In this document: positions 44,507 to 61,699 of the stretch, one piece after another
Position numbering within the stretch: position 1 is the first letter of the stretch
Layout: every line of letters starts with the position of its first letter
NCBI RefSeq assembly: GCF_018860915.1
Contig: NZ_JAHKQD010000048.1
Span: 62,001 to 126,000, forward strand
Direction: 5' to 3'
Source: Colwellia sp. C2M11
GTDB taxonomy: Bacteria; Pseudomonadota; Gammaproteobacteria; Enterobacterales; Alteromonadaceae
DNA length: 64,000 nucleotides
The notes under the pieces: generated by a model
Databases searched by the model: none
What the model was told of the DNA's origin: nothing
Seen by the model: only the letters and a program-made list of their open reading frames with translations
Translations under genes and position numbers: made by a program

Positions 44507-44560
44507 TGTTGGCTCCAAAGGTTAAATAAATTTCACGAAAGCTAGTATAAGTAATTCAAT

Positions 44561-44598
44561 GCAAAGAAACGCAAAGCCAATGTAAAGATTAAGTAAAG
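44561..44598. promoter_or_regulatory. Four tandem CpxR-type half-sites
   Basis: G(C/T)AAAG occurs at 44561, 44571, 44582 and 44593, a spacing of 10, 11 and 11 bases. The last pair, GTAAA-N6-GTAAA at 44582-44597, fits the known CpxR box. The array lies between the divergent spy/cpxP-like and cpxR-like genes, 55 bases from the one and 75 from the other, so it can serve both. Confidence 0.8.
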
Positions 44599-44672
44599 GT
44601 TACACAATGAAGTACAAGTTAATAATGATTAAGGTAAAATGATTGTACTTCTAACATAAGGTAAAAATTCTC

Positions 44673-45401
44673 TTGAATAAAAAGCACATATTATTAATTG
44701 ATGATGATCATGAGTTAGCAGAGCTTTTAGCCGATTATTTAGCTCAGCAGGACTTCCTTGTTCATTGTTGCTTTGACGGTCAGTCAGGACTTGAGCAGGC
44801 ATTCACGAATCAATACGATTTAATATTACTTGATGTAATGATGCCCAAACTTAATGGTTTTGAAGTATTGAAGGCGCTGGGTCAAGAGCATAAAACGCCA
44901 GTTTTAATGTTAACAGCTAAAGGCGATCATAACGATAAAGTTAGAGGCTTAGAATTAGGCGCTGATGATTACCTAGCAAAGCCCTTTCACCATCAAGAGT
45001 TATTAGCACGTATAAATGCCATCTTACGCCGGATTCAATTAGCGAGCCAACAAGGCCAGTCTCCCCTTGAAGCAGGTCACGAACAAGAAAAATCTATTTT
45101 AACCGTAAATGATATAGCACTAAACCATGCTATCCGAGCAGCTTCTTGCCATGATAACCCAATTGAACTCACAGGTACTGAATACCAAATATTAACCTTA
45201 TTATTGGAAAATCACGGCAAAATTATTTCTAAAGATACTATTTCAGAAAAAGTATTAAGCCGAAAGCTTAGTCCATTTGATCGTAGCATTGATGTACATA
45301 TTGGTAATATTCGTAGAAAATTTCTACCATTTTGTACCACTGAAAAAATAAAAACCGTCCGCGGTGCAGGGTATTTATTCTTAACAGGTGAAGATAGTTA
45401 A
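44673..45401 (+). CDS. cpxR: CpxR-like OmpR-family response regulator
   Basis: The envelope-stress response regulator that pairs with the kinase downstream. It has 242 residues from a TTG start with AAGGTAA upstream. The receiver has LIDDDHELAELL, phosphoacceptor D54 in LILLDVMMPKLNG, T81 in MLTAKG and K103 in YLAKPFHHQEL. The winged-helix domain shows ELTGTEYQILTLLLENHGKIISKD, LSRKLSPFDRSIDVHIGNIRRK and TVRGAGYLF, all close to CpxR. The kinase start is one base after its stop. Divergent from a CpxP/Spy-like gene, as in enteric bacteria. Confidence 0.9.
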   Translation: MNKKHILLIDDDHELAELLADYLAQQDFLVHCCFDGQSGLEQAFTNQYDLILLDVMMPKLNGFEVLKALGQEHKTPVLMLTAKGDHNDKVRGLELGADDYLAKPFHHQELLARINAILRRIQLASQQGQSPLEAGHEQEKSILTVNDIALNHAIRAASCHDNPIELTGTEYQILTLLLENHGKIISKDTISEKVLSRKLSPFDRSIDVHIGNIRRKFLPFCTTEKIKTVRGAGYLFLTGEDS

Positions 45402-45402
45402 C

Positions 45403-46836
45403 ATGTCCCTAATCAAAGCCTCCTCTAAAATAAAAACCTTATTATCTTCATTTACCATTAAACTATTTGTCTGGTTTTGGCTCATTGCAATTACATCTAT
45501 TATTAGCACACGCTGGATTTCACAGCAGCTATCCAATGATGTTATTCGTGAAGTAGTTAGTCATAAATCAAAACCTGATGAACTTTATCAGCTCAATAAA
45601 ATGGCAAAACGTATCAAGCGTAATAAAGCAGAAAATATTGAGCAATTCTTAACGCTACAAAAAAAAAGACTTGCTCTAACCCCATTTAATATTTGGTTAA
45701 AAAGTATCGATGGTAATTCAAGGATTGTTAGCGCTATCCCATTACCGAAAAATTTTCAACGCGTATTAACCGATTACCTTAGCGAGAATACTTTTACGCA
45801 ACCCACAACTAGCTTTTTTTCGCATACGGAAATAGTAGGCCCCGTACTAATCAATATTAATAATCAACCTTATCAACTATTTATTTCGCGTAAAGTTCAC
45901 AAACCAAACATTAGTCAAATTGTTCAATCACTTCCCTACTGGTTGCGTATTGTGACGCCAACCTTGATTAGCTTTTTACTTTGTTTGCTACTAGCACATT
46001 CATTTAGTAAGCCTATTCGATTAATTAAAAAAGCGACAACAAGATTAGGCCAAGGTGATTTTGATTCACGTGTTGAAGGCGTAGGTCAGCTTAGCGGCGA
46101 GTTAGAACAATTAGCTAATAGTTTTAATAAAATGGCAGAGCAATTACAGCAACACCAAAGCTCACAAAGACGCTTATTAGGTGATGTTTCACATGAACTA
46201 CGATCACCTATGACAAGGCTTCAGATGGCTCTGGGGTTAGCACAACAAGAATCAACAACGCCACAAGCACGTGAGCAATATTTACAACGTTGTCAACGAG
46301 AAATAGATAGATTAGATCACATGATTGAAAATGTATTAGTGCTATCTCGCTTAGAGAATACCTTGCAAAAAGCAGAGTATGAACAAGTTAACCTTTCAAC
46401 ACTAATACAAAATATCATAAACGATGAACAATTTATTGCGGATAAAAAGTCGATCAGTATTAACTATAATGCTCCCGCTAAAATAATGTTATTAGCTGAT
46501 CAAACCTTACTCACAAGTGCCATTAGTAACGTACTTAACAACGCGGTGAAATATAGCCCAGAGCAAAGTACTATTAACGTTCAATTATCGATAGAAAAGC
46601 AAAAAGTTATTTTAGTCGTTAGCGATAAGGGTAATGGTGTACCTGAAGAATCATTAACGCAGCTGTTCACACCATTTTATCGAGTTAATCTTGCCAGAGA
46701 TCGGGCGACAGGTGGAACAGGCTTAGGTTTAGCAATAGCGAAACAAGCCATTATCACACATCAAGGTGAAATTTTTGCTAAAAATAACGCAGATAATGGT
46801 TTATCTGTTATTATTGAACTTCCTTATTTTGAATAA
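45403..46836 (+). CDS. cpxA: CpxA-like sensor histidine kinase
   Basis: A 477-residue inner-membrane sensor; I use the ATG at 45403, right after the cpxR stop, with GGTGAAG upstream. TM1 is about 20-37 (IKLFVWFWLIAITSIIS) and TM2 about 183-202, with a ~145-residue periplasmic domain. A HAMP domain follows (SFSKPIRLIKKATTRLGQGDF), then HisKA with H264 in LGDVSHELRSPMTRLQMALGLA, closely matching CpxA, and a HATPase with NVLNNAVKYSP, VSDKGNGVP and GGTGLGLAIAKQ. All boxes are intact. The next gene, a DUF748 protein, starts 32 bases on and may belong to the operon. Confidence 0.9.
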   Translation: MSLIKASSKIKTLLSSFTIKLFVWFWLIAITSIISTRWISQQLSNDVIREVVSHKSKPDELYQLNKMAKRIKRNKAENIEQFLTLQKKRLALTPFNIWLKSIDGNSRIVSAIPLPKNFQRVLTDYLSENTFTQPTTSFFSHTEIVGPVLININNQPYQLFISRKVHKPNISQIVQSLPYWLRIVTPTLISFLLCLLLAHSFSKPIRLIKKATTRLGQGDFDSRVEGVGQLSGELEQLANSFNKMAEQLQQHQSSQRRLLGDVSHELRSPMTRLQMALGLAQQESTTPQAREQYLQRCQREIDRLDHMIENVLVLSRLENTLQKAEYEQVNLSTLIQNIINDEQFIADKKSISINYNAPAKIMLLADQTLLTSAISNVLNNAVKYSPEQSTINVQLSIEKQKVILVVSDKGNGVPEESLTQLFTPFYRVNLARDRATGGTGLGLAIAKQAIITHQGEIFAKNNADNGLSVIIELPYFE

Positions 46837-49497: not shown

Positions 49498-52400
49498 TTG
49501 TTTTTTAATAAATTTACATGTTTTATTATATTTCTTACTGGCATTATTTTACCTGCTTTCAGTAATGAACGTCCTTCACAACTAACTAACGAATACTCTG
49601 TTGAAATGTTAACAGCAGAAGATGGTTTTGTTGCGTCAGAAATCTACTCCATTATTCAAGATACTCAAGGGTTACTTTGGTTTGGTACCGGTGAAAATGG
49701 CGTTATGTGCTACGACGGCCGTAAAGTCACTCTTTTTGAGTCTGACGGTATTAGTACTACTGGTTTATCCCATAATTATGCTGGCAATCTGATGTTAGAC
49801 CGTGAAGGAAAGATATGGATCGGTACATGGGGAGGTGGCGCTAACCTGTATGATCCTACTACCGGAGAATTTAAATATTTTATTCATGATGCAAAACGTG
49901 CTGATTCTATTTCATCTAACCGCATACAAAGCTTGTATCACGATCAAGAAGGTACTATTTGGTTAGGCTCCTATGAACATGGCTTGAATAAATATCTTGG
50001 CGGTAATAGCTTTGAGCACGTTCAAAAAGTTGAAGGCACCGAATCAAGTTTATCTCATAATAGGATATGGGATATTGAAGATAACGATAGTGATAGCCTT
50101 TGGATAGCGACGAGCTTTGGCTTAAATTTATATAATAAGCGGAACCATACTTTTTCCCATTTCCTCCCAGACCCAGAAAATTTAACGCCTACAGGCGCAA
50201 ACGAAATTAGAAGCATTTTAAAAACGTCAAAAAATAAAATTTATGTTGGCACTCAAAAAGGGCCCTTTATATTTGATAAAGTAAATAGTACTTTTAGCTC
50301 ATTAGAAACGTTAATCGATCAAAATTTAGGTCAAGTCAATTCAATGATTGAAGACCATAAAGGTAATATTTGGTTTGTGACGAGTAAAGGCTTATTTCAT
50401 CAACGACACTCAAGTTCCCACATTGAAAAATTTGAGCTTGAATACAGTCATGGTTTAAGAATAGCTTTTGAAGATAGCTCCAGAACATTATGGGTTACTA
50501 ATGAGAATCACGGTATTTACAAAATAATACCAAAACGAAAATTTAAAAATATTAATAGTAATAATTTAACAGCTCCTAATGGCATCACTGCTGATCCTAA
50601 TGGCGATGTGTTAATTGCATCATCATTATCTGCCTTGTATAAATGGCACGTATCATCACAAAAGTTAGAAACATTATCACCAAATATTTTTAGTAATGAG
50701 AATAGCTATGAAGGAAATAGGTTATTCGATAAGCCTATTATGGTTTCAGATGGAGTAAACAGTATATGGCTTGGACAGGATGATGGCTTAGCTAAATTTA
50801 ACTTCATTACTAAACAAGTTCAATTAGTAAAATATCCTCCATCAGATCCACATTACAAACAGTTTCGAGAGATACGAGCACTTAACATTGATCGCCATGG
50901 CATTATTTGGATAGGAACATATAAAAACGGTATATATCACTATAATCCATCAACTAATAGTTTCACCCACTTAGATGACGCTTTGGGCCTATCTCACCCA
51001 GAAGTATTAAAAATATATAAAGACAATGAACAAAAGATCTGGGTTGGTACTGGTGATGGGTTAAACCTTTGGGATGAAGAGAATCAAAAGTTTACTATAT
51101 TTAAGCATGATATAAATAAAACAGGTAGTTTATTAGGGAAGATCGTCCAAGATATCTATCAATCACAAGATGGAAAATTGTGGATTGCCACACAAAAAGG
51201 GCTTAATTTATATACCTCTAAAACTAAAACGTTTAAACATTTTGGCAAGAAAAATGGGTTACCCACATCATTAATCCGTGCAATTACCGACGATAACAAT
51301 GGCAATTTGTGGCTAACAACTAACAAAGGAATTTCAAAATTAAATCCGCAAACCGAAGAGGTAACTAACTTTGATCGCTATAGTGGGTTATTAGGCCTAA
51401 ATTATTACCCTGGTAGTCTAGTAAAAGCTGCTAATGAAACTCTCTTTACCAGTAGTCAACGAGGTGTTGAATTTTTTAGTACCTCACCTATTGAAACAAA
51501 TGATCATGAATTTAATATTGTATTAACTGGTTTCAATAAAATGGGTAAGCCTGTCAAACTTGATACACCTCACGCTTATATCAGTGAAATACAACTATCT
51601 TATCTTGATTATTTTTTCTCTTTTGAATTTTCGGTATTAGACTTTGTTTCTCCCACTAAAAATATGTATGCCTATAAATTAGAAGGATACGATGAAAACT
51701 GGATTGACATGGGCAATAGGAATGTAGTTTCTTTTAACAATTTAGATGGTGGTACCTATAAATTATTGGTGAAAGCAACAAACAGTAGCGGTAAATGGGG
51801 CAAGAAAATATTGTCCATTGACCTCGTTGTATCTCCCCCTCCCTGGAAAACGTGGTGGGCTTATAGTCTATACGTATTAGTTTCTATTCTAACGATATTT
51901 ATCTTTATTTATTTTAGAACACGACTACAACAAAAAGAAATTGATAGACAGAAAAAGTTTGTTGTTGCACTTGAGGAGCAAGTCATGGAAAAAACTGCGT
52001 CATTGAATGCCCAAGCTAAAGACCTTATAGCAGTAAATAAGCAATTAGAAATACTTACCTATCAAGATGGCTTAACCGGTTTATATAATCGACGGTATTT
52101 TGATAAACGCTTAACTGAAGAGATAAGTAGACATCGCCGTCAAAAACAACCGCTTTCGCTTATTATTGCTGATATAGACCACTTTAAACTTTTTAATGAT
52201 TTTTATGGACATCAAAAAGGAGATGAGTGTCTTAAGCAAGTAGCTCAATGCATTATTGAAAATGTAGCCCGTATTACCGACGCCAATTGCCGTTATGGTG
52301 GCGAAGAATTTGCCATTATTCTACCAAATACCTCAATAGCCGAATCAACTCTTGTTGCGGAGCGCTTATGCTCGGCAGTAGAAAATCTGAAAATTGTCCA

Positions 52401-52560
52401 CGAAAAATCAATAACTAGCGCATTTATTACCTTAACATTAGGTGTTGTCACTGTATCTCAAGCACAAGAAACCTCGGTAGATTCAATCGTGTTAAGTGCT
52501 GATAAAGCACTTTATCTTGGTAAATCCAATGGCAGAAATAACGTAACACGCGCCGAATAA
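49498..52560 (+). CDS. Diguanylate cyclase with periplasmic two-component-regulator propeller
   Basis: A 1020-residue membrane sensor that makes c-di-GMP. It starts with TTG and a signal segment (FFNKFTCFIIFLTGIILPAFS). The periplasmic part (about 35-670) holds many Reg_prop repeats (ENGVMCYD, IWIGTWGGGANLYDP, GTIWLGSYEHGLNKY, KIWVGTGDGLNLWD), predicted as two seven-bladed propellers, then a Y_Y_Y domain (about 700-775). A membrane helix (WWAYSLYVLVSILTIFIFIYF), a coiled coil and a GGDEF domain complete it. The active site is GGEEF at 934-938, with an RxxD inhibitory site (RITD, 925-928) five residues before it, so product inhibition is expected. Monocistronic. Confidence 0.93.
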   Translation: MFFNKFTCFIIFLTGIILPAFSNERPSQLTNEYSVEMLTAEDGFVASEIYSIIQDTQGLLWFGTGENGVMCYDGRKVTLFESDGISTTGLSHNYAGNLMLDREGKIWIGTWGGGANLYDPTTGEFKYFIHDAKRADSISSNRIQSLYHDQEGTIWLGSYEHGLNKYLGGNSFEHVQKVEGTESSLSHNRIWDIEDNDSDSLWIATSFGLNLYNKRNHTFSHFLPDPENLTPTGANEIRSILKTSKNKIYVGTQKGPFIFDKVNSTFSSLETLIDQNLGQVNSMIEDHKGNIWFVTSKGLFHQRHSSSHIEKFELEYSHGLRIAFEDSSRTLWVTNENHGIYKIIPKRKFKNINSNNLTAPNGITADPNGDVLIASSLSALYKWHVSSQKLETLSPNIFSNENSYEGNRLFDKPIMVSDGVNSIWLGQDDGLAKFNFITKQVQLVKYPPSDPHYKQFREIRALNIDRHGIIWIGTYKNGIYHYNPSTNSFTHLDDALGLSHPEVLKIYKDNEQKIWVGTGDGLNLWDEENQKFTIFKHDINKTGSLLGKIVQDIYQSQDGKLWIATQKGLNLYTSKTKTFKHFGKKNGLPTSLIRAITDDNNGNLWLTTNKGISKLNPQTEEVTNFDRYSGLLGLNYYPGSLVKAANETLFTSSQRGVEFFSTSPIETNDHEFNIVLTGFNKMGKPVKLDTPHAYISEIQLSYLDYFFSFEFSVLDFVSPTKNMYAYKLEGYDENWIDMGNRNVVSFNNLDGGTYKLLVKATNSSGKWGKKILSIDLVVSPPPWKTWWAYSLYVLVSILTIFIFIYFRTRLQQKEIDRQKKFVVALEEQVMEKTASLNAQAKDLIAVNKQLEILTYQDGLTGLYNRRYFDKRLTEEISRHRRQKQPLSLIIADIDHFKLFNDFYGHQKGDECLKQVAQCIIENVARITDANCRYGGEEFAIILPNTSIAESTLVAERLCSAVENLKIVHEKSITSAFITLTLGVVTVSQAQETSVDSIVLSADKALYLGKSNGRNNVTRAE

Positions 52561-52608
52561 AATCATAAAAATTGGTTCTGTTATTTTACTTCCATTATTT
52601 CTGGTTTA

Positions 52609-52630
52609 TGCACATAGTTTGCACATTGTT
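52609..52630. promoter_or_regulatory. Tandem TGCAC repeat 1 (upstream of the BaeS-like gene)
   Basis: TGCACATAGTT (52609-52619) is followed directly by TGCACATTGTT (52620-52630), an 11-bp direct repeat, 86 bases before the kinase start. The same arrangement recurs at 55034 and 56288. Confidence 0.7.
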
Positions 52631-52716: not shown

Positions 52717-54192
52717 ATGAAAATTCAAAATAAATTATTTTTGATTTTATTTAGCTTTAGTTTTTTACTCGTCGCTTTATTAGTCTTCCTGATGCAATGG
52801 AGCATTGGTAAAGGCATGATTAACTATGTAAATACCAAAGAAATAGAAGCGCTAGAGCCCGTAGTAATCGAGCTAGCTAAAGAATATCAGATAAAAAATA
52901 ATTGGCTTAGCATGAAAGGACGTCATGGTAAATTTATCCGCTTAGTTTCCAAGCAACTTGCTGACAGTAACTTTACCTCAAAACAAAAAAGTCGCTCACC
53001 TGAACATTTATCTTTTCGTCGCCCGCCACCAATGCGTCCTGCAGAAGAACAAGGTCGGCCACCTAGAAATGACTTCCATGAGGAAAGAACACCACCACCC
53101 CGAGAAAATGAAGCATTTTATGCATTACTTGATCATAATAAAAACCTGGTGGTTGGTAAATATATTGAGGAAATTGAATACAGCAAAACAGAAGTAATCG
53201 TTGATGATACTATCGTAGGCTATTTTGCTGTTTCTAAACGTAATCAACTTACCCAAGGTTACGAAGTCGACTTTATTGAACAGCAACAATATTACTTATG
53301 GATTATAGCATTATTTGTTATGAGCCTAGTTGCCTTAGTAACACTACCATTAACGCGACATTTAGTTGAACCTCTAAAATTAATTACCCAAGGTATGCAT
53401 AAACTCACCCAAGGTGACTATCAGCAATCCATCAACTTAAACAGAGAAGATGAACTTGGCAGATTAAGTAGGGACTATAATGAATTAGCACATTCTTTGG
53501 CAGAGAATGAAACTACCCGAAAACGTTGGCTCGCTAATATTTCTCATGAATTGCGTACTCCTGTAGCTATTTTACGTGGTGAATTAGAAGCTATGTTAGA
53601 TGGAGTTAGACCACTAAATAAAAAAAATATTGCTTCAGCAAATGATGAAGTAAAACACCTTCAACGATTAATTGACGATTTAAATTTACTTACCAGTGCT
53701 GACATTGGAGGAATGCGCTATCGTAAGAAAAATGAAGAATTAACACAATTAATGCATAGTGTAATAGATACATATCATAGTTATTTGAATGACGCTGGTA
53801 TCAAACTTACTACTGACATTATCGATGAAAAAATTAATGTCTTCATCGATAAAACTCGCCTTTGTCAATCATTTGAGAATATCATTAATAATGCAATAAA
53901 ATACTCAACCGCTACATGCTTTAATATCTCTTTAAGCATTGAAAATACTAATCATAGCTCAAACGTATTGATAAAATTTGAAGATAATGGTGTCGGCGTA
54001 GACGATATTCATTTGAGCCATTTATTCGAGCATTTATACCGTGTTGAAGATTCTCGAAATAGAAAAACTGGCGGCTCTGGTTTGGGTCTGTCGATATGTC
54101 GGCATATTGTCATGGCACATCAAGGAGAAATTACCGCTGAAAACTCACCTCTTGGTGGTTTAGCCATTATTATTAAGTTACCTATAGTTTAA
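52717..54192 (+). CDS. BaeS-like sensor histidine kinase with proline-rich sensor
   Basis: A 491-residue membrane kinase. TM1 is about 6-26 and TM2 about 192-212. The periplasmic sensor holds an unusual proline/arginine-rich stretch at about residues 102-130 (RRPPPMRPAEEQGRPPR and then RTPPPRE). After the HAMP domain come HisKA with H277 in WLANISHELRTPVAILRGELEAM, close to BaeS, and a HATPase with FENIINNAIKYS, FEDNGVGVDD and GGSGLGLSICRHIV. All catalytic boxes are intact. The regulator gene follows 45 bases later. It heads the CotH/VTC locus and carries the TGCAC repeat in its promoter, so it is probably autoregulated. Confidence 0.92.
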   Translation: MKIQNKLFLILFSFSFLLVALLVFLMQWSIGKGMINYVNTKEIEALEPVVIELAKEYQIKNNWLSMKGRHGKFIRLVSKQLADSNFTSKQKSRSPEHLSFRRPPPMRPAEEQGRPPRNDFHEERTPPPRENEAFYALLDHNKNLVVGKYIEEIEYSKTEVIVDDTIVGYFAVSKRNQLTQGYEVDFIEQQQYYLWIIALFVMSLVALVTLPLTRHLVEPLKLITQGMHKLTQGDYQQSINLNREDELGRLSRDYNELAHSLAENETTRKRWLANISHELRTPVAILRGELEAMLDGVRPLNKKNIASANDEVKHLQRLIDDLNLLTSADIGGMRYRKKNEELTQLMHSVIDTYHSYLNDAGIKLTTDIIDEKINVFIDKTRLCQSFENIINNAIKYSTATCFNISLSIENTNHSSNVLIKFEDNGVGVDDIHLSHLFEHLYRVEDSRNRKTGGSGLGLSICRHIVMAHQGEITAENSPLGGLAIIIKLPIV

Positions 54193-54237
54193 TAATACAT
54201 AATTCACTCACACTTATTCCTGTTTGAGAGTACTAAA

Positions 54238-54903
54238 ATGTCAAATTCAATATTGATTGTAGAAGATGAAATTAAACTTGCAGAGTTGTTAGCTGATTAT
54301 TTCAAATTGACCGAATATGAGCCTCATTTGATTCATCATGGTGATGAGGTTATTACTTGGGTAAAAGAGCATCAACCTAGCGTGATTTTACTCGACATTA
54401 TGCTACCAGGTAAAAACGGCATAGATATATGCAAAGAAATTCGTCAATTTTCTAATATTCCTATTTTACTCGTCACCGCAAAAGTTGAGGAAATAGATCG
54501 ATTATTAGGGCTAGAATTAGGTGCAGATGACTATATATGCAAACCCTTTAGCCCGCGCGAAGTTGTTGCTCGAGTTAAAGCCGTTTTAAGAAGAACCCAA
54601 ACAATTCACTATAATACCGAAATACTCAAACTTGATGAACACCGTTTTACCGTTGAGTTCCACAATCAAGAAGTTGCCTTAACCTCGGTAGAGTTTCAAT
54701 TGTTAAAGCCTTTAGCAAACAAGCCTGAAAGAATTTTTACCCGTGAACAATTAATGCAAAACATGTATTCAGATCAACGTATTGTAAATAATCGCACTAT
54801 TGATAGTCACATCAAAAAATTGCGCAAAAAGCTCGCTGATATAAGTGAAGGAAAAGACTGGATTCAATCTGTTTACGGTACAGGTTATCGCTTAATGTTG
54901 TAG
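54238..54903 (+). CDS. BaeR-like OmpR-family response regulator
   Basis: A 221-residue regulator, partner of the kinase upstream. The receiver has IVEDEIKLAELLADYF, phosphoacceptor D53 in VILLDIMLPGKNG, T80 in LLVTAKVEE and K102 in YICKPFSPREVVARVKAVLRR. The winged helix shows ALTSVEFQLLKPLANKPERIFTREQLM broken at the loop, and the DNA-contact region NRTIDSHIKKLRKKL, ending in VYGTGYRLML. The domain content is that of BaeR. Tandem 11-bp TGCAC repeats upstream of the kinase, EF-hand and CotH genes are its likely sites, since OmpR-family dimers bind direct repeats; this is inference. Confidence 0.92.
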   Translation: MSNSILIVEDEIKLAELLADYFKLTEYEPHLIHHGDEVITWVKEHQPSVILLDIMLPGKNGIDICKEIRQFSNIPILLVTAKVEEIDRLLGLELGADDYICKPFSPREVVARVKAVLRRTQTIHYNTEILKLDEHRFTVEFHNQEVALTSVEFQLLKPLANKPERIFTREQLMQNMYSDQRIVNNRTIDSHIKKLRKKLADISEGKDWIQSVYGTGYRLML

Positions 54904-55033
54904 CTTACTTGAAATTATAAAGCTTTACAGTATTAATACCGTGCCTTAATTAACGGAACTTCTGCGTAATAAATACCCTTTTTATTTTGTTTTATTTATT
55001 AATGATAGCAATTCTAAAACTTCCTCTTTTCTT

Positions 55034-55055
55034 GCACATTATTTGCAATTTCTGT
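55034..55055. promoter_or_regulatory. Tandem TGCAC repeat 2 (upstream of the EF-hand gene)
   Basis: TGCACATTATT (55034-55044) is followed by TGCAATTTCTG (55045-55055), the second half-site imperfect. It lies 87 bases before the EF-hand start, nearly the same distance as for repeat 1. Confidence 0.65.
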
Positions 55056-55142
55056 TGTTAATATTACTTTGAAAAATAGCTTTGCATAGTAATTTTGAAC
55101 ATGGTTATTCACAGTATTAACCATGCAGCAACAGGAGATTTT

Positions 55143-55442
55143 ATGAATATATATATCAAGCAGGCAATAGTCGTTACATTATTAGTCTTAGCCTCAAACC
55201 AAGTATTAGCAAAAAACACTCAAAATGACGGAGATAGACCATCTCGCCCTACTTTTGAATCCATAGACAGTAATAGTGATGGTGATATCGATTTTGATGA
55301 GTTTTCATCTCAGGAACTGCCGCATGGTGACCATCAAACCGTATTCGATGAAATAGATACTGACAACAATGGCGTGATAAGTAATGAAGAATTTACTAAC
55401 CATAAGCCGCCAAGACCACAAAATCGTAAGGGTAACTCATAA
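55143..55442 (+). CDS. Secreted two-EF-hand protein
   Basis: A 99-residue predicted periplasmic calcium-binding protein. The ATG at 55143 has AGGAG seven bases upstream and opens a signal peptide (IKQAIVVTLLVLASNQVLA-KN); the longer in-frame start lacks these. Two canonical EF-hand loops follow: DSNSDGDIDFDEF and DTDNNGVISNEEF, each with acidic ligands at positions 1, 3, 5 and 12. The C-terminus is proline-rich and basic (HKPPRPQNRKGNS). Its stop overlaps the start of the next gene by one base. It may act as a calcium sensor for the kinase or the CotH protein, which is inference. Confidence 0.88.
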   Translation: MNIYIKQAIVVTLLVLASNQVLAKNTQNDGDRPSRPTFESIDSNSDGDIDFDEFSSQELPHGDHQTVFDEIDTDNNGVISNEEFTNHKPPRPQNRKGNS

Positions 55443-55903
55443 TGATTAATAACATCAGCTCTAGCATGCAAATGCCACAACAAAGAACAGAACAAAGTTT
55501 AACTGAAGATCAACAAAGCATTCTGAGCGAAACATTATCGCAATATGATGCAGAAAATTTGAGCGAATCAGATGCCCTTAACATTGTCGAAACCCTGTCA
55601 CAAGCTGGAATTCAGCCTAGTGGAGCAATGGAAAAAGCAATGTCTGATTTAGGTTTTGACGCAAAAAGTATTGGTGACATAGCCAACGTATCTGAAGACG
55701 GTAACAGACCACCGCCACCGCCGAAACAAAGTACGGAAGAAATTACTTCAATGGTTGATTACTTAGCAGAACTGATGGAAGAAAAGTTAGCAGCAAGTAG
55801 CAGTAACGAACTAAGCGATGAAGATAAGGAATCTATCTTAACGCAAGTTTACCAAAAATTTGATATTGAAGATGGTGAATCCATTATTAATACCACTGCA
55901 TAA
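55442..55903 (+). CDS. Hypothetical proline-containing protein coupled to the EF-hand gene
   Basis: A 153-residue acidic protein with no signal peptide or membrane helix, so cytosolic unless exported by another route. I do not recognise a family. The first half (LTEDQQSILSETLSQYDAENLSESDALNIVETLSQAGI) reads like two degenerate EF-hand-type helix pairs, without calcium loops. A PPPPPK stretch (about residue 91) links it to a second helical half ending in LTQVYQKFDIEDGESIINTTA. It starts on the last base of the EF-hand gene, which implies translational coupling and a shared role. Confidence 0.75.
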   Translation: MINNISSSMQMPQQRTEQSLTEDQQSILSETLSQYDAENLSESDALNIVETLSQAGIQPSGAMEKAMSDLGFDAKSIGDIANVSEDGNRPPPPPKQSTEEITSMVDYLAELMEEKLAASSSNELSDEDKESILTQVYQKFDIEDGESIINTTA

Positions 55904-55936
55904 AACTTACACTGACTTTAATATTTAGCTTGTTTA

Positions 55937-56196
55937 TACCCGTTACCATTCAAGATGCAGGTTTCAGTGGGAACTAAAAACAATTTAGGCAAGGCATTAA
56001 GTTTACGTCATGGTTATTCCCTTACTAAAGTTAATAACGCGGCATAAATTGTTTTTAGACCCATCGAAGAAGCGCTTGAGCAAAATCACTTCTTCGTTAG
56101 TGCTTTTTATAAGGGAGCGACCATTATTACAAAACACTGCCTTGAATTGATATCGCTCAAGCACTCTGAAATACGCATATTGATTGGTAACGGGTA
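55937..56196. mobile_element. MITE-like non-autonomous element (TA-flanked)
   Basis: Terminal inverted repeats at 55935-55958 and 56175-56198 match over 24 bases with two differences (outer TATACCCGTTACCA exact), and TTTCAG homology continues inward. Two inner inverted pairs are exact: TAAAAACAATTTA (55975) with TAAATTGTTTTTA (56045), and GCTTGAGC (56074) with GCTCAAGC (56155). No ORF fits a transposase. If the flanking TA is the target duplication, the element is 260 bp and would be mobilised by an IS630/Tc1-mariner-type transposase; the TA reading is uncertain, because TATA ends are ambiguous. Confidence 0.75.
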
Positions 56197-56287
56197 TATA
56201 TTCAGTGTTGTTCTGAAAAAAGCGTTGCTCTTATAAGGGTAACGCTTTTTTTAATTTTGTCATATTATTGTAACATTCCTCATTTGT

Positions 56288-56309
56288 TGCACATTGTTTG
56301 CACCGTCTC
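56288..56309. promoter_or_regulatory. Tandem TGCAC repeat 3 (upstream of the CotH gene)
   Basis: TGCACATTGTT (56288-56298), identical to the second half of repeat 1, is followed directly by TGCACCGTCTC (56299-56309). It lies 44 bases before the CotH start and just right of the MITE-like element. Confidence 0.7.
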
Positions 56310-56353
56310 TTAATAAAGTGTCCTTCTCGTATGACTTTTTAAGAAGCTAACAA

Positions 56354-58966
56354 ATGAAATATTCACCTCTCTTATCTTATACTTTATTACTCAGTAGCAG
56401 CTTGTTATTCGGCTGTGGTGATTCGAGTAGTGAAGATAGTTCTACTGAAAGTGACCCAACCGTCAATGATTCAACTGAAATCACACAACCCTCAACGTTT
56501 TCAAGCTTGATTATCAATGAAATTGTCGCCAGCGCTGCAGATGATGGTAACGATTGGATTGAGTTATATGCGCTTGAAGGCCCAGTAAATTTATCAAGTT
56601 ATAGCATAGTGGATGATAGTACAGAACACGCTGCTCAAGCATTACCTGATATTACATTAGCTCAAGGCGACTTTATTGTTATTCAAGCCATTGATGAAAA
56701 CGACACCCCACCTACCGATGGTTATTATGTAACATTTAAACTAGGTAGTGATGATGCTGTCACCTTATTTAAAGATGATGTGCAAGTAGATCAACTAGAT
56801 TGGGAAGAAGGCGATGCAATCGAAGGCACTAGTTATGGGCTATTCATTGATGGCTCAGGTAGTGAGCAAACGTTATCACCAACCCCTGGAGAGGCTAATA
56901 TAGAATACACTGCCACTGAAGTAGTTATTCGCGATGTAATACTTAACGAAGATGCACCACTACGTATTAATGAAATTGTCGCTAATGATAGTGACGGAGG
57001 TTATGACTGGTTTGAGCTTTATGCTACTGGAGATACTGCGGTTTATTTAGGTGACTACACCATAGCAGATGAAAATAATGAATTATTTTCTCTACCTAGT
57101 ATAACACTGAATCCAGGGGAGTTTTACCAAATATATGCGACAAGTGATGAGATAGAAAATAGCGAGACCATTAACTTAAAGCTAGGCTCAAGTGACCAAT
57201 TAAGCTTGTATCAAAGAGACGATCTTGTTGACCAACTAAAATGGAGTAAAGGACAAGCATTAATTAATTATAGTTATGGTCGCTTTCCTGATGGCAGTGA
57301 CGGAACCCAAACACTGAGACCTTCACCTAAAGCTTATAACAGCACAGCACTTCATGGCCCATTATTAATTAATGAAATAGTGGCAAGTGATATTGATGGC
57401 GGCAATGATTGGTTTGAATTATATAACAATGGCACTACCAATATTTCTCTTGCAAATTATCAAGTTATTGATGAAAGTGATGACATTGATCCCGTAACAC
57501 TACCTGACGTTGTTTTAGCGCCTAATGAATATATCGTTATCTACGCAACAGATGAAGATCCGAATGATTATTACGTTCCTTTTAAACTAGGTAAAACAGA
57601 CGAATTAAGTCTTATATTAAATGATGAAACCGTTGATTATATCGATTGGGACGACAGTGATGTTATTGCTGGCTTTAGTTATGGATTAAGCGATAGTTCC
57701 AATAGCAGCGAAACCAGCTGGGATAAAGACTTTTTAACACCAACACCTGGTAGAGAAAATGAACTAGCGACCGCTTTTAACTTAAGTGTTGTTAATGATT
57801 TATACATTAATATCAGTACCGAAAACTGGCAAGATATTTTAGAGAACCCGCTTGACGAAGAATACCATGAAACCAGCATCACCTTTAATGGTGTAACGTT
57901 AGACAGTGTTGCTATTCGAACTAAAGGTGGTTCCAGTTTAAGCAGCGTTGCACAATCAACCAGTGACCGATATAGCTTTAAACTTGATATTAATGAATAT
58001 GTTGACGGACAAAAATTCTTTGGTCTGAAGAAGTTTACCCTTCAAAACTCTTTTAACGATCCTTCTTATATGCGTGAAGTGATCGCCTACGAATTGCTAG
58101 ATGAAATGGGCGTAGCAACACCAAAAAATTCTTATGTTAACTTCTACGTCAACGGTGAACTATTTGGCTTATACCTTATGGTTGAAGCGATTGATGGTGA
58201 ATTTTTAGAGAATCACTTCACTAACTCGAATGGTGACCTATACAAGCCAGACGGTACAGGTAGCGATCTGCTCTGGATAAATGGTGACATTGATAGCTAC
58301 AGTGACATTAATTTACAAACCAACGAAGAAACCACTGATAACGGTGCCTTTATCAATTTTGTTGAACAAATGGATAATGGCTCTACTGACGTAATTGATA
58401 CTGATAGCTTACTTAGATATATGTCAGTTAGTGTTGCCTTATCAAACCTCGACAGTTATCACGGTACTTTAGCGCATAACTACTACATTTATGAACAAGA
58501 TGGCGTCTTTAGTTTCCTACCTTGGGATTTTAATGAGTCTTTTGGCACATTTTCTATGAACTGTAATGCCGATATGAGAGAGCTTTATATCGACGAGCCA
58601 ACCAGTGGTGCTCTGGCTGATAGACCTATGATTGCTAATGTATTCGCCGATGATGACAGCTTAGCTATTTACCATGAATATTTATGGCAATTAATCGACG
58701 GGCCTTTATCAAGTGGTACTTTCAGTGCACGTGTCACAGAAATTGCAGATTTAATTCGTGAACATGTAGCGAACGATCCAAGTGCTTTTTATGGTGAAGC
58801 TGCATTCGAGCAAAACCTTAATTCGACAGTGAGTAACTTTTTTGGCTTAACCGAGTTTGTCGACTACCGTGTAGAGAATATGACTAAGCAATTGCTAGGT
58901 GATCTTCCTTCAACCAATAATGGTAGTGGTTTTTGTAGTAGCTCAGTTGGTGGTCCACCGCGTTAA
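56354..58966 (+). CDS. Lipoprotein with three lamin-tail domains and a CotH kinase domain
   Basis: An 870-residue predicted surface or periplasmic lipoprotein (lipobox LLFGC, Cys21). Three lamin-tail domains follow, each opening with INEIVA and DWFELY/DWIELY (about 53-185, 204-330 and 337-460). The CotH domain (about 475-860) is an atypical protein kinase fold: RTKGGSS, the ATP-binding lysine in YSFKLDIN, the NLDSYHGTLAHNYYIY region near 698-712 with the catalytic Asp, and FLPWDFNESFG near 722 as the metal-binding motif. CotH of Bacillus phosphorylates spore-coat proteins. Substrate here unknown. The C-terminus ends GGPPR. Confidence 0.9.
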   Translation: MKYSPLLSYTLLLSSSLLFGCGDSSSEDSSTESDPTVNDSTEITQPSTFSSLIINEIVASAADDGNDWIELYALEGPVNLSSYSIVDDSTEHAAQALPDITLAQGDFIVIQAIDENDTPPTDGYYVTFKLGSDDAVTLFKDDVQVDQLDWEEGDAIEGTSYGLFIDGSGSEQTLSPTPGEANIEYTATEVVIRDVILNEDAPLRINEIVANDSDGGYDWFELYATGDTAVYLGDYTIADENNELFSLPSITLNPGEFYQIYATSDEIENSETINLKLGSSDQLSLYQRDDLVDQLKWSKGQALINYSYGRFPDGSDGTQTLRPSPKAYNSTALHGPLLINEIVASDIDGGNDWFELYNNGTTNISLANYQVIDESDDIDPVTLPDVVLAPNEYIVIYATDEDPNDYYVPFKLGKTDELSLILNDETVDYIDWDDSDVIAGFSYGLSDSSNSSETSWDKDFLTPTPGRENELATAFNLSVVNDLYINISTENWQDILENPLDEEYHETSITFNGVTLDSVAIRTKGGSSLSSVAQSTSDRYSFKLDINEYVDGQKFFGLKKFTLQNSFNDPSYMREVIAYELLDEMGVATPKNSYVNFYVNGELFGLYLMVEAIDGEFLENHFTNSNGDLYKPDGTGSDLLWINGDIDSYSDINLQTNEETTDNGAFINFVEQMDNGSTDVIDTDSLLRYMSVSVALSNLDSYHGTLAHNYYIYEQDGVFSFLPWDFNESFGTFSMNCNADMRELYIDEPTSGALADRPMIANVFADDDSLAIYHEYLWQLIDGPLSSGTFSARVTEIADLIREHVANDPSAFYGEAAFEQNLNSTVSNFFGLTEFVDYRVENMTKQLLGDLPSTNNGSGFCSSSVGGPPR

Positions 58967-59069
58967 GACTCAATAATAATTATAGTGACAGAAGCGAGCC
59001 CCCTCATATAACGCTCAATTCTGTCTCTGTATTCCCCGTCTATCACTATTAATTTTGAGCGAGAAACCA

Positions 59070-59984
59070 ATGGAAATTACGCAACCTAATTTTGATCATG
59101 GTAACAACAATGATTTTTTTCAAAGCCCTGATTTACATATAAAAAACAAAATAAATATTGATGAAGCGAGCGTATTAGCAGATACAAAAATTTCGCCCCA
59201 TCCATCATTAGAAGAAGCATTAAGTTTATTTAACAGTCATGGCCTTAATGACCTTGATGCGGCTAATTTAATGAATAGGGTGGATAGTAAATTTATTCTG
59301 CCATTAGCATTTTTACCTGATTTACTTATACAGTTAAAAAGCTCATATACCGTACTTGAAATAAACAGTAATCGAGTTTCTAGTTACCACAATCAGTATT
59401 TTGACACACCTAATATGTCACTGTACCACGATCACCATAATGGTAAATTAAACCGCTATAAAGTACGTCGTCGTCGTTATGTTGATACGAATACTGAATT
59501 TTTAGAAGTAAAACTAAAAAACAATAAAAAACGTACCATCAAAAGTCGAATTAAGCTTGCTGGTGAAGAAAATGAGTATGCTCGATGTGCGCAATTTATT
59601 GATAAAAAAATGCATATCAACGTTAATACCCTAGATATCAGCCAACAAGGTGGCTACAAGCGTATTGCATTGGCTAACGAAGCACAGGCAGAACGACTAA
59701 CGCTAGACTTTGATCTTTGGTACCAAGACCGCAGAGGAAATAACAACGTAAAACTTCCTGGTTTTTTTATTGCAGAGCTTAAACAAAATAAAAAGTCTAA
59801 ACGCTCACTTTTTTATCAACTAATGAGCACCAACAATATTTTTCCTACTTCTTTTAGTAAGTACTGTATTGGCTGCGCATTGCTATACAACACGTCAATA
59901 AAATCGAATCAATTTAAAGCCATTTTGTCACATATAGAAAAACTTAACCGCATTGAGCAAACTTCATTTTTAAAGAGTAATTAG
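59070..59984 (+). CDS. VTC-domain polyphosphate polymerase family protein
   Basis: A 304-residue cytosolic protein of the VTC domain family, whose yeast member Vtc4 makes polyphosphate from ATP in a basic tunnel. The tunnel-type residues are all visible: R70 and K74 (MNRVDSKFIL), YFDTPNMSLY, the RYKVRRRRY cluster at 129-137, E146 and K148 (FLEVKLK), KKRTIKSR (153-160), R209 (ERLTLDFDL), E236 and K238 (IAELKQ) and K264 (SFSKYC). A TTG five codons earlier is a possible alternative start. The DUF4956 gene begins one base after its stop. Activity is inferred from conserved residues. Confidence 0.88.
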   Translation: MEITQPNFDHGNNNDFFQSPDLHIKNKINIDEASVLADTKISPHPSLEEALSLFNSHGLNDLDAANLMNRVDSKFILPLAFLPDLLIQLKSSYTVLEINSNRVSSYHNQYFDTPNMSLYHDHHNGKLNRYKVRRRRYVDTNTEFLEVKLKNNKKRTIKSRIKLAGEENEYARCAQFIDKKMHINVNTLDISQQGGYKRIALANEAQAERLTLDFDLWYQDRRGNNNVKLPGFFIAELKQNKKSKRSLFYQLMSTNNIFPTSFSKYCIGCALLYNTSIKSNQFKAILSHIEKLNRIEQTSFLKSN

Positions 59985-59985
59985 T

Positions 59986-60603
59986 ATGACTGAATTAGAC
60001 ATCATTTTTATCACCCGTTTTTTCATAAACTTAGCGTCATTATTTCTATTATGTTACGCCTGTTATTATCGCGTTAACAAAAACTCAACCGTAGCAAGTT
60101 CCTTTGTTTTATTTGGTGTGGGTATTTTTGTGATCACTTACCTTCTACATGGCGTTGATATGTCTATGGAGTTTTCTTTCGGACTATTTGCTGTTTTCAC
60201 TATGCTCAGATACCGCACTGAATCTATTTCTATTAAAGAAATGACTTACTTGTTTTTAGTAACCGCGATTGCTTTATTAACATCGGTTGGTCAAATGAAC
60301 TTAATGGATTTAATGACACTTAACATTGTGATTTGTCTGCTCGCTTTTGTAATGGACTCCAAACTATTTAGCAAAGGTTATCTAACACAGAGTATTTGTT
60401 ATGAACGAATAGAAAACATAACGCCTGCAAATAGAAATATATTGATTAACGACTTAAGGGTAAGAACGGGCTTACAAGTTGAAACTGTAGAAATTGAACA
60501 TATCGACTTTCTACGTGATACCGCTCAATTAACGGTGAGTTATAGCCCGCAAGCCAGTAATTCGACTCATACAGCTTCACAAACTCTAATTAAAACAAGC
60601 TAG
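59986..60603 (+). CDS. DUF4956 integral membrane protein
   Basis: A 205-residue membrane protein with about five hydrophobic segments in the first 130 residues (FFINLASLFLLCYACYY, SFVLFGVGIFVITYLLHGV, FSFGLFAVFTML, MTYLFLVTAIALLTSV, LNIVICLLAFVM) and a cytosolic C-terminal domain. The loop LRYRTESISIKEMTYLF is the most conserved-looking part of DUF4956. In many genomes this family neighbours VTC-domain genes, so it may be the membrane partner that anchors polymerase or moves polyphosphate; no experiment known to me shows this. It is tightly packed between the VTC and porin genes. Confidence 0.85.
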   Translation: MTELDIIFITRFFINLASLFLLCYACYYRVNKNSTVASSFVLFGVGIFVITYLLHGVDMSMEFSFGLFAVFTMLRYRTESISIKEMTYLFLVTAIALLTSVGQMNLMDLMTLNIVICLLAFVMDSKLFSKGYLTQSICYERIENITPANRNILINDLRVRTGLQVETVEIEHIDFLRDTAQLTVSYSPQASNSTHTASQTLIKTS

Positions 60604-60613
60604 AGGTAATACT

Positions 60614-61699
60614 ATGAACCAGACTCCCTTACTTGCAAAATTAATAACATTTACATTATCTTGCTGTGTACTTAGTCCAATATTACAAGCAAAAAGTAAT
60701 AATGTTGATATCAGTGGTTACGTTATGATTGATCATAACGATTTTGACGATTCCTTTTTAGAAAATGAGGGCGAGCCAACAAGCGAAACAGCTATTCGTC
60801 GCGCTCGACTTAGCTTTAAAAATAAAATTGATGATAATTGGAAAACAAAACTACAACTAGGATTTTCGGATGACACAGCAGAAATTAAAGACGCGTATCT
60901 AAAATATAGTGGCTGGCAATGGGCGGATCTTACCTTAGGACAACAAAAAGAAGGCTTTGGCTTAGAAAAGTTAACCAGTTCACGCAACACCATGATGATG
61001 GAGCGCAGCTTAGTTACCGAAGCTCTTAGTCCTGGACGTTCTATCGGGGCCAATTTATCGGGTGATTTCTCATCGTTTACATGGCAACTTGGTTATTTTA
61101 GACCCGACGAAACTCAAAGTAGTTCAGCGATAACAGGCCGATTGACTTGGCTTCCTTGGCAACAAGAAAATAATCTGGTTCACCTCGGTGTCGCATTTAG
61201 TGAGCGCGATCTTGATGGTAGTGAATATCGTATTAATGAACCGCTTGAAGTCAATTTTTCTGATTCTTTATTTGAAGGTACAGATCTATTAGCTGAAGAT
61301 GTTTCCTTACAAGGAATAGAATTTTTATGGCAACAACATGGTTTTACGACAACGGCAGAATGGCAGAAAGCCCGAGTAACTGATGTTAATTCACAAGAGT
61401 ATGATTATGAAGGTGGCTACTTACAAGTAAGCTATCAATTGTCGGGTGATAACCGAGAATACAAAAAAGGTGAATTAGGCAATGTCATTACACCAGGTTG
61501 GGAGTTAACAAGCCGATATAGTCAATTGGAATTAGTTGAAGAAGCAGAGAAAGCACAAATTTATTCGGTCGGCGTAAACTATACCATGGACAAAAACCTG
61601 AAATTTATGGCTGACTATATAAAAACCAAGCAATTAAAAAACAGTAGTGAATTTGACGCAGGAAATGCTATTACTTTAAGAGCACAATATACTTTCTAA
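60614..61699 (+). CDS. OprO/OprP-like phosphate-selective porin
   Basis: A 361-residue outer-membrane beta-barrel. The signal peptide (about 1-26, LITFTLSCCVLSPILQA) precedes strand patterns of the Porin_O_P family: AIRRARLSFKNKIDDNWKTKLQLGFSD split around a turn, IKDAYLKYSGWQWADLTLGQQKEGFGLEKLTSS, MMMERSLVTEALSPGRSIGANLSG, and a C-terminal ALTLRAQYTF-like end with terminal phenylalanine. Relatives OprP and OprO of Pseudomonas import phosphate and pyrophosphate/polyphosphate. It starts ten bases after the DUF4956 gene, which ties the operon to phosphate compounds. Confidence 0.88.
   Translation: MNQTPLLAKLITFTLSCCVLSPILQAKSNNVDISGYVMIDHNDFDDSFLENEGEPTSETAIRRARLSFKNKIDDNWKTKLQLGFSDDTAEIKDAYLKYSGWQWADLTLGQQKEGFGLEKLTSSRNTMMMERSLVTEALSPGRSIGANLSGDFSSFTWQLGYFRPDETQSSSAITGRLTWLPWQQENNLVHLGVAFSERDLDGSEYRINEPLEVNFSDSLFEGTDLLAEDVSLQGIEFLWQQHGFTTTAEWQKARVTDVNSQEYDYEGGYLQVSYQLSGDNREYKKGELGNVITPGWELTSRYSQLELVEEAEKAQIYSVGVNYTMDKNLKFMADYIKTKQLKNSSEFDAGNAITLRAQYTF

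What the first reader, a model, noticed from the sequence alone, without database searches (positions are those of the whole stretch)
52717..61699. Candidate signalling and polyphosphate locus: BaeSR-like pair, EF-hand protein, CotH kinase, VTC polymerase, DUF4956 and OprO/P-like porin
Seen: intact kinase and regulator, a two-EF-hand secreted protein, a lipoprotein with CotH kinase and three lamin-tail domains, a VTC-domain protein with the full set of basic tunnel residues, a DUF4956 membrane protein and a phosphate-type porin, all on one strand. Known: CotH is an atypical protein kinase, VTC proteins make polyphosphate, and OprO/OprP import phosphate or polyphosphate. Inference: a sensory system that couples a calcium or envelope signal to surface protein phosphorylation and polyphosphate synthesis or export. 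I know of no described function for this set as a unit.
Basis: partly seen in the sequence, partly recalled or inferred. Interest (0 to 1): 0.8.

Follow-up and report, generated by a model that had tools for sequence, protein, structure and literature searches.

The report
Regulated polyphosphate and surface-kinase gene cassette
A bacterium, probably marine, carries a widely conserved gene cassette that probably makes polyphosphate at its inner membrane beside a surface protein kinase, and a neighbouring sensor system appears to switch the cassette on through a shared DNA site.

Summary
In detail: all named genes are intact and carry the named domains. They form two modules.

Module A (histidine kinase, response regulator, EF-hand protein, 153-aa protein) also occurs without module B, including in a same-genus genome. 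Module B is CotH lipoprotein, VTC polymerase, DUF4956 membrane protein and Porin_O_P barrel. VTC (over cut-off) and DUF4956 occur in the same 17 of 295 genomes of the order, linked in all 17. 16 of these also have CotH, against 13 of the other 278. A barrel follows DUF4956 in 66 of 81 loci: Porin_O_P in 41, DUF2490-type in 25. This suggests a cytosol-to-surface assembly. VTC keeps all 11 mapped Vtc4 tunnel residues.

New result: a direct repeat (TTGCACATTNT-TTGCAC) precedes the kinase operon, the EF-hand gene and the CotH operon. Its only exact match in the held genome precedes CotH; the four one-mismatch sites precede EF-hand and three lipoprotein genes, two of them YHYH. The site stands before CotH/VTC also in relatives whose regulator lies on another contig. 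Sensor control of the VTC operon is thus supported computationally. Polyphosphate synthesis, export, calcium sensing and kinase activity are inferred. CotH-VTC-DUF4956 sets are already reported beside Gram-positive pel loci.

The parts
52608..52629 (+). predicted RR box upstream of HK-RR operon (direct repeat, 11-bp period)
   Evidence: third-best site of the 64-kb window with a PWM trained on other genomes, score 18.6, little above the Markov maximum 17.8; 2 mismatches to the core
52717..54192 (+). BaeS-like sensor histidine kinase (module A), Pro/Arg-rich variable periplasmic insert
   Evidence: BaeS models 364.5 and 358.6 bits against cut-offs 500 and 603; alignment of 9 orthologues
54238..54903 (+). 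BaeR-like OmpR/PhoB-type response regulator (module A)
   Evidence: 317.1 bits against cut-off 380; 87% and 81% identical in L019 and L124
55032..55053 (+). predicted RR box upstream of EF-hand/P153 genes
   Evidence: best site of the window, score 28.8; 1 mismatch to the core
55095..55442 (+). secreted protein with two EF-hands (likely ATG start 55143)
   Evidence: orthologues in L019, L124, L125
55442..55903 (+). P153, 153-aa protein of no named family, overlapping the EF-hand gene by one base
   Evidence: relatives in 15 of 295 genomes of the order
56214..56253 (+). terminator-like hairpin between modules A and B
   Evidence: -22.1 kcal/mol, z -6.9; hairpins at the same place in L019 and L124
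56287..56308 (+). predicted RR box of the CotH-VTC-DUF4956-porin operon, 67 bp before the CotH start
   Evidence: score 23.7; only exact match to TTGCACATTNTTTGCAC in the 4.17 Mb held
56354..58966 (+). lipoprotein with three lamin-tail domains and a CotH kinase domain
59055..59984 (+). VTC-domain (triphosphate-tunnel) polyphosphate polymerase
59986..60603 (+). DUF4956 inner-membrane protein, about five hydrophobic segments and a soluble C-terminal domain
60614..61699 (+). Porin_O_P outer-membrane barrel

Best explanation
Two modules share one regulator. Module B (CotH lipoprotein, VTC, DUF4956, outer-membrane barrel) is an envelope-spanning polyphosphate module: cytosolic VTC polymerises phosphate from ATP, DUF4956 is its near-obligate inner-membrane partner and probable exit path, an outer-membrane barrel completes the route, and the CotH lipoprotein kinase acts at the cell surface or periplasm on proteins of the same pathway. 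Module A (BaeSR-like kinase and regulator, EF-hand protein, P153) is a separate envelope-sensing system whose regulator binds the direct repeat TTGCACATTNT-TTGCAC 67 bp before CotH. It thereby switches module B on together with its own operon, the EF-hand operon and a few surface lipoproteins (two with a YHYH domain). Shown here by sequence: gene content, linkage, conservation of tunnel residues, the repeat and its distribution. Inferred: binding by this regulator, polyphosphate synthesis, export through DUF4956 and the barrel, and CotH activity.
For: Linkage: VTC (over cut-off) and DUF4956 in the same 17 of 295 genomes (hypergeometric 6e-28); of 364 genomes 8 have DUF4956 and 7 of those 8 are all the genomes with VTC over cut-off, with equal copy numbers; the same 3 of 14 control genomes hold both. 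CotH in 16 of 17 against 13 of 278 (Fisher 1e-17). In 81 loci (window plus 80) VTC lies directly upstream of DUF4956 in 76, CotH within 6 kb in 42, Porin_O_P directly downstream in 41 and a DUF2490-type barrel in 25 (Pfam of two barrels). VTC residues equivalent to Vtc4 K200, R264, R266, E279, K281, K294, R361, D377, E426, K428, K458 are identical; R264A/R266A/E426N was used to inactivate Vtc4 (PMC9911596, passages). Regulation: a PWM trained only on other genomes ranks the EF-, CotH- and HK-upstream sites 1-3 in 64 kb. In 4.17 Mb, 5 sites with 0-1 mismatch, all intergenic before genes, against 0 in each of three simulated genomes. Boxes stand before CotH or VTC where the regulator gene is on another contig (G296, G297, G298, G300-G303).
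Against: No expression or biochemical data. The porin keeps only part of the OprP phosphate site (K121 and K313 yes; K323 is T, D94 is K; residue roles recalled). CotH is not adjacent to VTC in, for example, L020, L024, L025, L027, L028, L030. The window's genome also has PPK1, so VTC is not its only possible polyphosphate source. Box and regulator do not match perfectly: G255 and G139 have a regulator at 60% and 79% identity but no clear box at the operon start examined (G139's CotH is on another contig and its upstream was not examined), G044 has a box with only a 51% identical regulator, and Thioploca L033 scores 13.6 with no regulator searched. With genomes whose regulator was properly searched the association is 10 of 12 against 1 of 4, Fisher 0.063. 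G223, G139 and G044 gave no site at 0-1 mismatch.
Confidence: 0.5

Rival explanations
1. The cassette is an accessory to exopolysaccharide or surface-matrix production, and polyphosphate is incidental: VTC and DUF4956 modify or energise matrix assembly, with CotH phosphorylating matrix proteins or synthases, as proposed for the kinase of the Gram-positive pel-linked set.
For: CotH, polyphosphate polymerase and DUF4956 genes lie beside pelDEADAFG in streptococci, clostridia and bifidobacteria (PMC7112168, passages). VTC and CotH genes lie with a glycosyltransferase in C. perfringens NELoc-2 (PMC2879425, passages). CotH here carries lamin-tail domains and a lipobox-like motif.
Against: I noticed no polysaccharide synthase among the gene products scanned around the window cassette, and none stood out among the neighbour clusters of the 80 loci, of which I read only 20 representatives; no dedicated search was made. 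A Porin_O_P or DUF2490-type barrel is the commoner neighbour (66 of 81).
Confidence: 0.2
2. The cassette serves phosphate capture and storage: the porin imports phosphate or polyphosphate and VTC stores it inside the cell; DUF4956 is a VTC scaffold, not a channel.
For: Porin_O_P family, OprP the top structural hit at 1.4e-18 with two of three (recalled) phosphate-binding lysines kept.
Against: The operon's best candidate box is the same repeat as that of the BaeSR-like module; I did not scan for a Pho box. In 25 loci the porin is replaced by a DUF2490-type barrel. CotH has no obvious place in simple storage.
Confidence: 0.15
3. The two modules are neighbours by chance and the shared repeat is a general promoter feature, not a binding site of this regulator.
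For: Modules occur separately; the repeat overlaps a plausible -35 element, TTGCAC; box and regulator presence agree only at Fisher 0.063.
Against: Only 5 sites of 0-1 mismatch in 4.17 Mb, all before secreted, surface or membrane gene sets. In 11 same-family genomes without the module, 2 sites, both inside ORFs. None of 14 Marinobacter cassettes reaches the 99.9% null score, and the one Marinobacter genome searched (G305) has no regulator match at 1e-60.
Confidence: 0.12

Closest known systems
CotH-PPP-DUF4956(-DUF4832) accessory genes of Gram-positive pel loci (PMC7112168)
   Same: same three protein families as a contiguous gene set (listing and passages seen)
   Different: no pel genes noticed here; an outer-membrane barrel and a candidate two-component regulator box instead; CotH here has lamin-tail domains
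Yeast VTC complex (Vtc1/Vtc3/Vtc4), PMC9911596
   Same: VTC/TTM catalytic domain with all mapped tunnel residues; a membrane protein gene linked to it, as synthesis is coupled to translocation in yeast (passages)
   Different: no SPX match in the Pfam scan; catalytic and membrane parts on separate genes; DUF4956 found no VTC structure by profile search
BaeSR/CpxAR envelope-stress two-component systems
   Same: domain layout; best NCBIfam models are BaeS and BaeR
   Different: scores below the BaeS and BaeR equivalog cut-offs; EF-hand and P153 partners; the repeat TTGCACATTNT-TTGCAC differs from the BaeR site I recall
Bacillus CotH spore-coat kinase (5jd9, 5jda; PMC7821199)
   Same: CotH family, 8.2e-16; residues equivalent to D228 and D251 present (mapped by spacing)
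   Different: lipobox-bearing protein with three lamin-tail domains in a Gram-negative

Membership tests
VTC polyphosphate polymerase | VTC domain over Pfam cut-off | tested here: met
   87.0 bits against cut-off 23
VTC polyphosphate polymerase | basic tunnel residues and metal-binding Glu of Vtc4 | tested here: met
   11 of 11 mapped residues identical; K79, R138, K153, K163, R203, D218, E241, K243 invariant in 52 sequences
VTC polyphosphate polymerase | makes polyphosphate from ATP | not testable with these tools
   needs enzyme assay
Eukaryotic VTC complex | SPX regulatory domain | tested here: not met
   no SPX match at E 0.1 in any of the nine proteins scanned
Eukaryotic VTC complex | polyphosphate passed through a membrane channel | not testable with these tools
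   structure prediction off; hydropathy only
CotH kinase | CotH domain and catalytic Asp pair | tested here: met
   207.2 bits against 23.8; D700, D725 (Bacillus numbering mapped by 23-residue spacing)
BaeSR | NCBIfam equivalog cut-offs for BaeS and BaeR | tested here: not met
   364.5 against 500, 358.6 against 603, 317.1 against 380 bits
Phosphate-selective porin OprP/OprO | Porin_O_P family over cut-off | tested here: met
   160.1 bits against 20.9
Phosphate-selective porin OprP/OprO | central residues K121, K313, K323 and D94 (recalled) all kept | tested here: not met
   K, K, T, K at the aligned places, so 2 of 4 kept; the K121 equivalent is R in 24 and K in 15 of 41 porins

The most novel reading that the evidence does not exclude
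A bacterial polyphosphate secretion machine: VTC polymerase in the cytosol, DUF4956 as the inner-membrane polyphosphate channel, an outer-membrane barrel (Porin_O_P or DUF2490) as exit, delivering polyphosphate to the cell surface where the CotH lipoprotein works, possibly with polyphosphate rather than ATP as its phosphate donor; all placed under an EF-hand-associated envelope sensor.
Probability: 0.27. Interest if true: 0.87.

Novelty: new variant of a known kind. Interest (0 to 1): 0.62.

Why it matters
I found no assigned pathway for bacterial VTC-DUF4956 pairs (searches; open-licence papers only). The strict VTC-DUF4956 linkage names DUF4956 as the likely membrane partner. The recurrent outer-membrane barrel points to an envelope-spanning route. 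The regulator box gives a concrete predicted regulon and a first handle on when the cassette is used. If polyphosphate is exported, it could give secreted kinases such as CotH a phosphate source outside the cytosol, a question that becomes testable with single-gene deletions.

Tried and rejected
VTC-DUF4956 fusions: two long 'fused' ORFs (L035, L085) were read and rejected as frame-overlap artefacts of GC-rich DNA.

First neighbourhood counts (VTC in 72, CotH in 43 of 81 loci) were replaced because my overlap filter hid true genes; one search repeats them without the filter and recounts them (VTC 76, CotH within 6 kb 42, porin 41, DUF2490-type barrel 25, none with both). The batch box scan took the VTC instead of the CotH start for L021-L023, L026, L029, L031, L032 and L063; searches give the CotH starts. 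The first random-segment null contained true sites and was replaced.

Box against regulator: one search gave 10 of 12 against 1 of 6 (Fisher 0.013), but two of the six (G079, G159) had their regulator searched only at 1e-90, a limit that misses the 61-62% regulators found. I dropped both; 10 of 12 against 1 of 4 gives 0.063.

Structure of DUF4956 and VTC: structure prediction is off. I recall a resemblance of DUF4956 to MgtC but did not test it. YHYH function: the paper listing gave nothing useful. Searches for BaeR/CotH/EF-hand and prokaryotic VTC (passages of PMC7332688) gave nothing on this set. DUF4956 is named in a B. thetaiotaomicron table beside DUF2490 (PMC10434189, passage) and in a B. 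adolescentis list (PMC6848847, passages); I draw no claim from them.
Full report
OBSERVATION. One more gene, a 153-aa protein (P153, 55442-55903), overlaps the end of the EF-hand gene by one base and belongs to the same set. A hairpin with a T run at 56214-56253 (-22.1 kcal/mol, z -6.9) separates HK-RR-EF-P153 from CotH-VTC-DUF4956-porin. Hairpins sit at the same place in Colwellia maritima (L019) and in L124. One base lies between VTC and DUF4956, ten between DUF4956 and the porin.

LINKAGE. In 295 genomes of the order, DUF4956 is in 17. VTC over its cut-off is in the same 17 (an 18th, G080, is below the cut-off), each within 4 kb of the DUF4956 gene by the listed coordinates. CotH is in 29, including 16 of those 17; in the exception, G058, the VTC match starts 751 bases from a contig end. 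In 364 genomes of the phylum, DUF4956 is in 8 and VTC over cut-off in 7, all 7 among the 8, with equal copy numbers; G533 has only a weak DUF4956 (1e-9) and no VTC. Among 14 named control genomes the same three (a Bacteroides, Corynebacterium glutamicum, Methanosarcina acetivorans) hold both VTC and DUF4956. Of the window's family, no other genome in the order sample had DUF4956 or VTC, so the cassette is patchy; transfer or loss was not tested.

NEIGHBOURHOODS. One genome scan returned 80 loci, the best of 573 relatives and so biased to near relatives. With the window that makes 81. VTC lies directly upstream of DUF4956 in 76; of the 5 without, 3 have under 1 kb of upstream DNA. CotH lies within 6 kb in 42, Porin_O_P directly downstream in 41 and a DUF2490-type barrel in 25, none with both (Pfam of two barrel members). 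The order CotH-VTC-DUF4956-porin holds in 33 (counted). Some Shewanella, Psychrosphaera and Pseudoalteromonas loci lack the adjacent CotH. In a genus of another family (g15) the order is DUF4956, a CotH-domain protein, VTC: seven genomes by the coordinates, five of them read, where a protein of about 726 aa of unknown family follows. Barrels of two different Pfam families in the same slot are the strongest anatomical hint of an envelope-spanning assembly; that reading is inference.

PROTEINS. The VTC profile finds yeast Vtc4 (6.4e-6). Positions equivalent to K200, R264, R266, E279, K281, K294, R361, D377, E426, K428 and K458 are K79, R138, R140, E151, K153, K163, R203, D218, E241, K243 and K269 in the window protein; 8 of these 11 are invariant in 52 sequences and the other 3 nearly so. 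R264A/R266A/E426N is the catalytically impaired Vtc4 of PMC9911596, which also reports that basic residues lining the membrane channel are needed for vacuolar polyphosphate (passages). DUF4956 shows about five hydrophobic stretches and a soluble C-terminus. R77, K84 and E85 are found in all 61 sequences counted (4 divergent rows of 65 left out), R75 in 60, and R11 in the first hydrophobic stretch in 56. Its best PDB matches by sequence are insignificant (1.8 and 8.3). CotH matches Bacillus CotH (8.2e-16); D700 and D725 align with two Asp whose 23-residue spacing fits D228 and D251, the residues of the inactive mutants in PMC7821199 (passages; mapping inferred). The porin aligns best with OprP (1.4e-18) but keeps 2 of 4 checked phosphate-site residues (residue list recalled).

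TWO MODULES. P153 marks module A. It is in 15 of 295 genomes, 4 of which also have DUF4956 (Fisher 0.007). In the same-genus genome G194 and in G120, G125, G151 and G227 the HK, RR and P153 genes (with the EF-hand gene in all but G120, where I saw none) stand in genomes without VTC or DUF4956. The full eight-gene row recurs in L019 (where CotH reads as two ORFs) and in L124, a genome of the genus of Shewanella ulleungensis (inferred by matching G159 to L027), with regulators 87% and 81% identical.

REGULATOR BOX. Upstream regions show a direct repeat, TTGCACATTNT-TTGCAC, with an 11-base period as expected for OmpR/PhoB-type regulators (established knowledge). A matrix was built from six sites of other genomes (five before EF-hand genes, one before P153 in G120), none with a VTC cassette beside it in the sequence at hand (the G139 contig ends just after P153). 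It ranks the window's EF-, CotH- and HK-upstream sites first, second and third in 64 kb, both strands (28.8, 23.7, 18.6). The next sites score 16.4 (overlapping the CotH site), 16.0 and 15.1; twelve one-strand Markov sequences of 64 kb reached 17.8 at most, so the HK site is only just above noise. In the held genome the exact core occurs once, before CotH. Four more sites have one mismatch. All five are intergenic and lie before the CotH operon, EF-P153, a PKD lipoprotein followed by a weak EF-hand protein, a YHYH lipoprotein and a PKD-YHYH lipoprotein. Of seven two-mismatch sites one is the HK site and six are inside ORFs. At up to 3 mismatches the real and reversed patterns are about equally common (62 and 57), so only the near-exact sites carry signal. 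Three simulated genomes had none at 0-1 mismatch.

FOOTPRINTING. In 24 chosen genomes 18 sites have 0-1 mismatch, against 5 for the reversed pattern. 13 are intergenic: 6 before EF or P153, 3 before CotH, 1 before VTC, 2 before YHYH-type lipoproteins, 1 before a DUF4397 lipoprotein. 5 fall inside ORFs, one of them (L199) in the over-long start of a PKD-type lipoprotein. The 11 same-family genomes without the module gave 2 sites, both inside ORFs. G223, G139 and G044 gave none at this strictness. In G297, G298 and G303 the regulator (81-83% identical) is on another contig than the cassette, yet the box stands before CotH or VTC (scores 18.4, 14.0, 24.1). In four Pseudoalteromonas genomes (G296, G300, G301, G302) the regulator is 61-62% identical, again on another contig, and the box scores 20.0-22.6. 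Counting operons scored against the 99.9% null (12.7; 5000 random segments), 10 of 12 with a regulator of at least 60% identity have the box, and 1 of 4 whose search at 1e-60 gave less (Fisher 0.063). The exceptions are G255 and G139 (regulator, no box) and G044 (box, 51% regulator); Thioploca L033 scores 13.6 and was not searched. The rows are related and were chosen by me, so this is support, not proof.

OTHER. PPK1 is present in 10 of 22 cassette genomes searched, the own one included; PPK2 was not searched. So VTC is not a plain substitute for PPK1.

KNOWN. PMC7112168 reports CotH, a polyphosphate polymerase, DUF4956 and DUF4832 genes beside pel loci of Gram-positives (passages); PMC2879425 lists VTC and CotH genes in a C. 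perfringens locus (passages). DUF4956 is named in 3 papers of the library. I found no paper on the Gram-negative cassette with a barrel or on its regulation; most subscription papers are outside this library.

VERDICT. My estimates: regulator controls the operon 0.8 (lowered from 0.85 when the box table was corrected); VTC makes polyphosphate 0.75; polyphosphate leaves the cytosol 0.4.

Noticed in passing
window 43970-46836: A second two-component pair (RR 44673-45401, HK 45388-46836) beside a divergent LTXXQ (CpxP/Spy-type) gene, i.e. a Cpx-like system about 6 kb upstream of module A; similar LTXXQ and RR genes lie near module A in G194 (L142).
   Followed up: partly
window 49498-52560: Protein with Reg_prop propeller, Y_Y_Y and GGDEF domains (a candidate sensor diguanylate cyclase) directly upstream of module A.
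   Followed up: partly
G000 C22:49132, C33:137496, C12:152624 (L155, L156, L153): Three lipoprotein operons share the candidate regulator box; two carry YHYH domains. Similar lipoproteins with the YHYH signature are also boxed in Pseudoalteromonas (L196) and Psychrosphaera (L197).
   Followed up: partly
L019 4282-6970: The CotH gene of Colwellia maritima reads as two ORFs (300 and 603 aa), so it is interrupted or mis-assembled there.
   Followed up: no
L116 8813-11425, L117 3361-5700: Alternative CotH proteins with a different C-terminal part (Beta_helix match in L117 only) sit beside DUF4956 and VTC in other families; in L116 a 726-aa protein of no Pfam family follows.
   Followed up: partly
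window 55442-55903: P153 is an unnamed family with a poly-proline stretch; the HK periplasmic insert and the EF-hand protein are also Pro-rich.
   Followed up: no
L066-L098 (mostly Bacteroidetes loci): Small secreted or lipoprotein genes (about 126-140 aa, two kinds) precede VTC in many loci without CotH upstream, perhaps filling the CotH slot.
   Followed up: no
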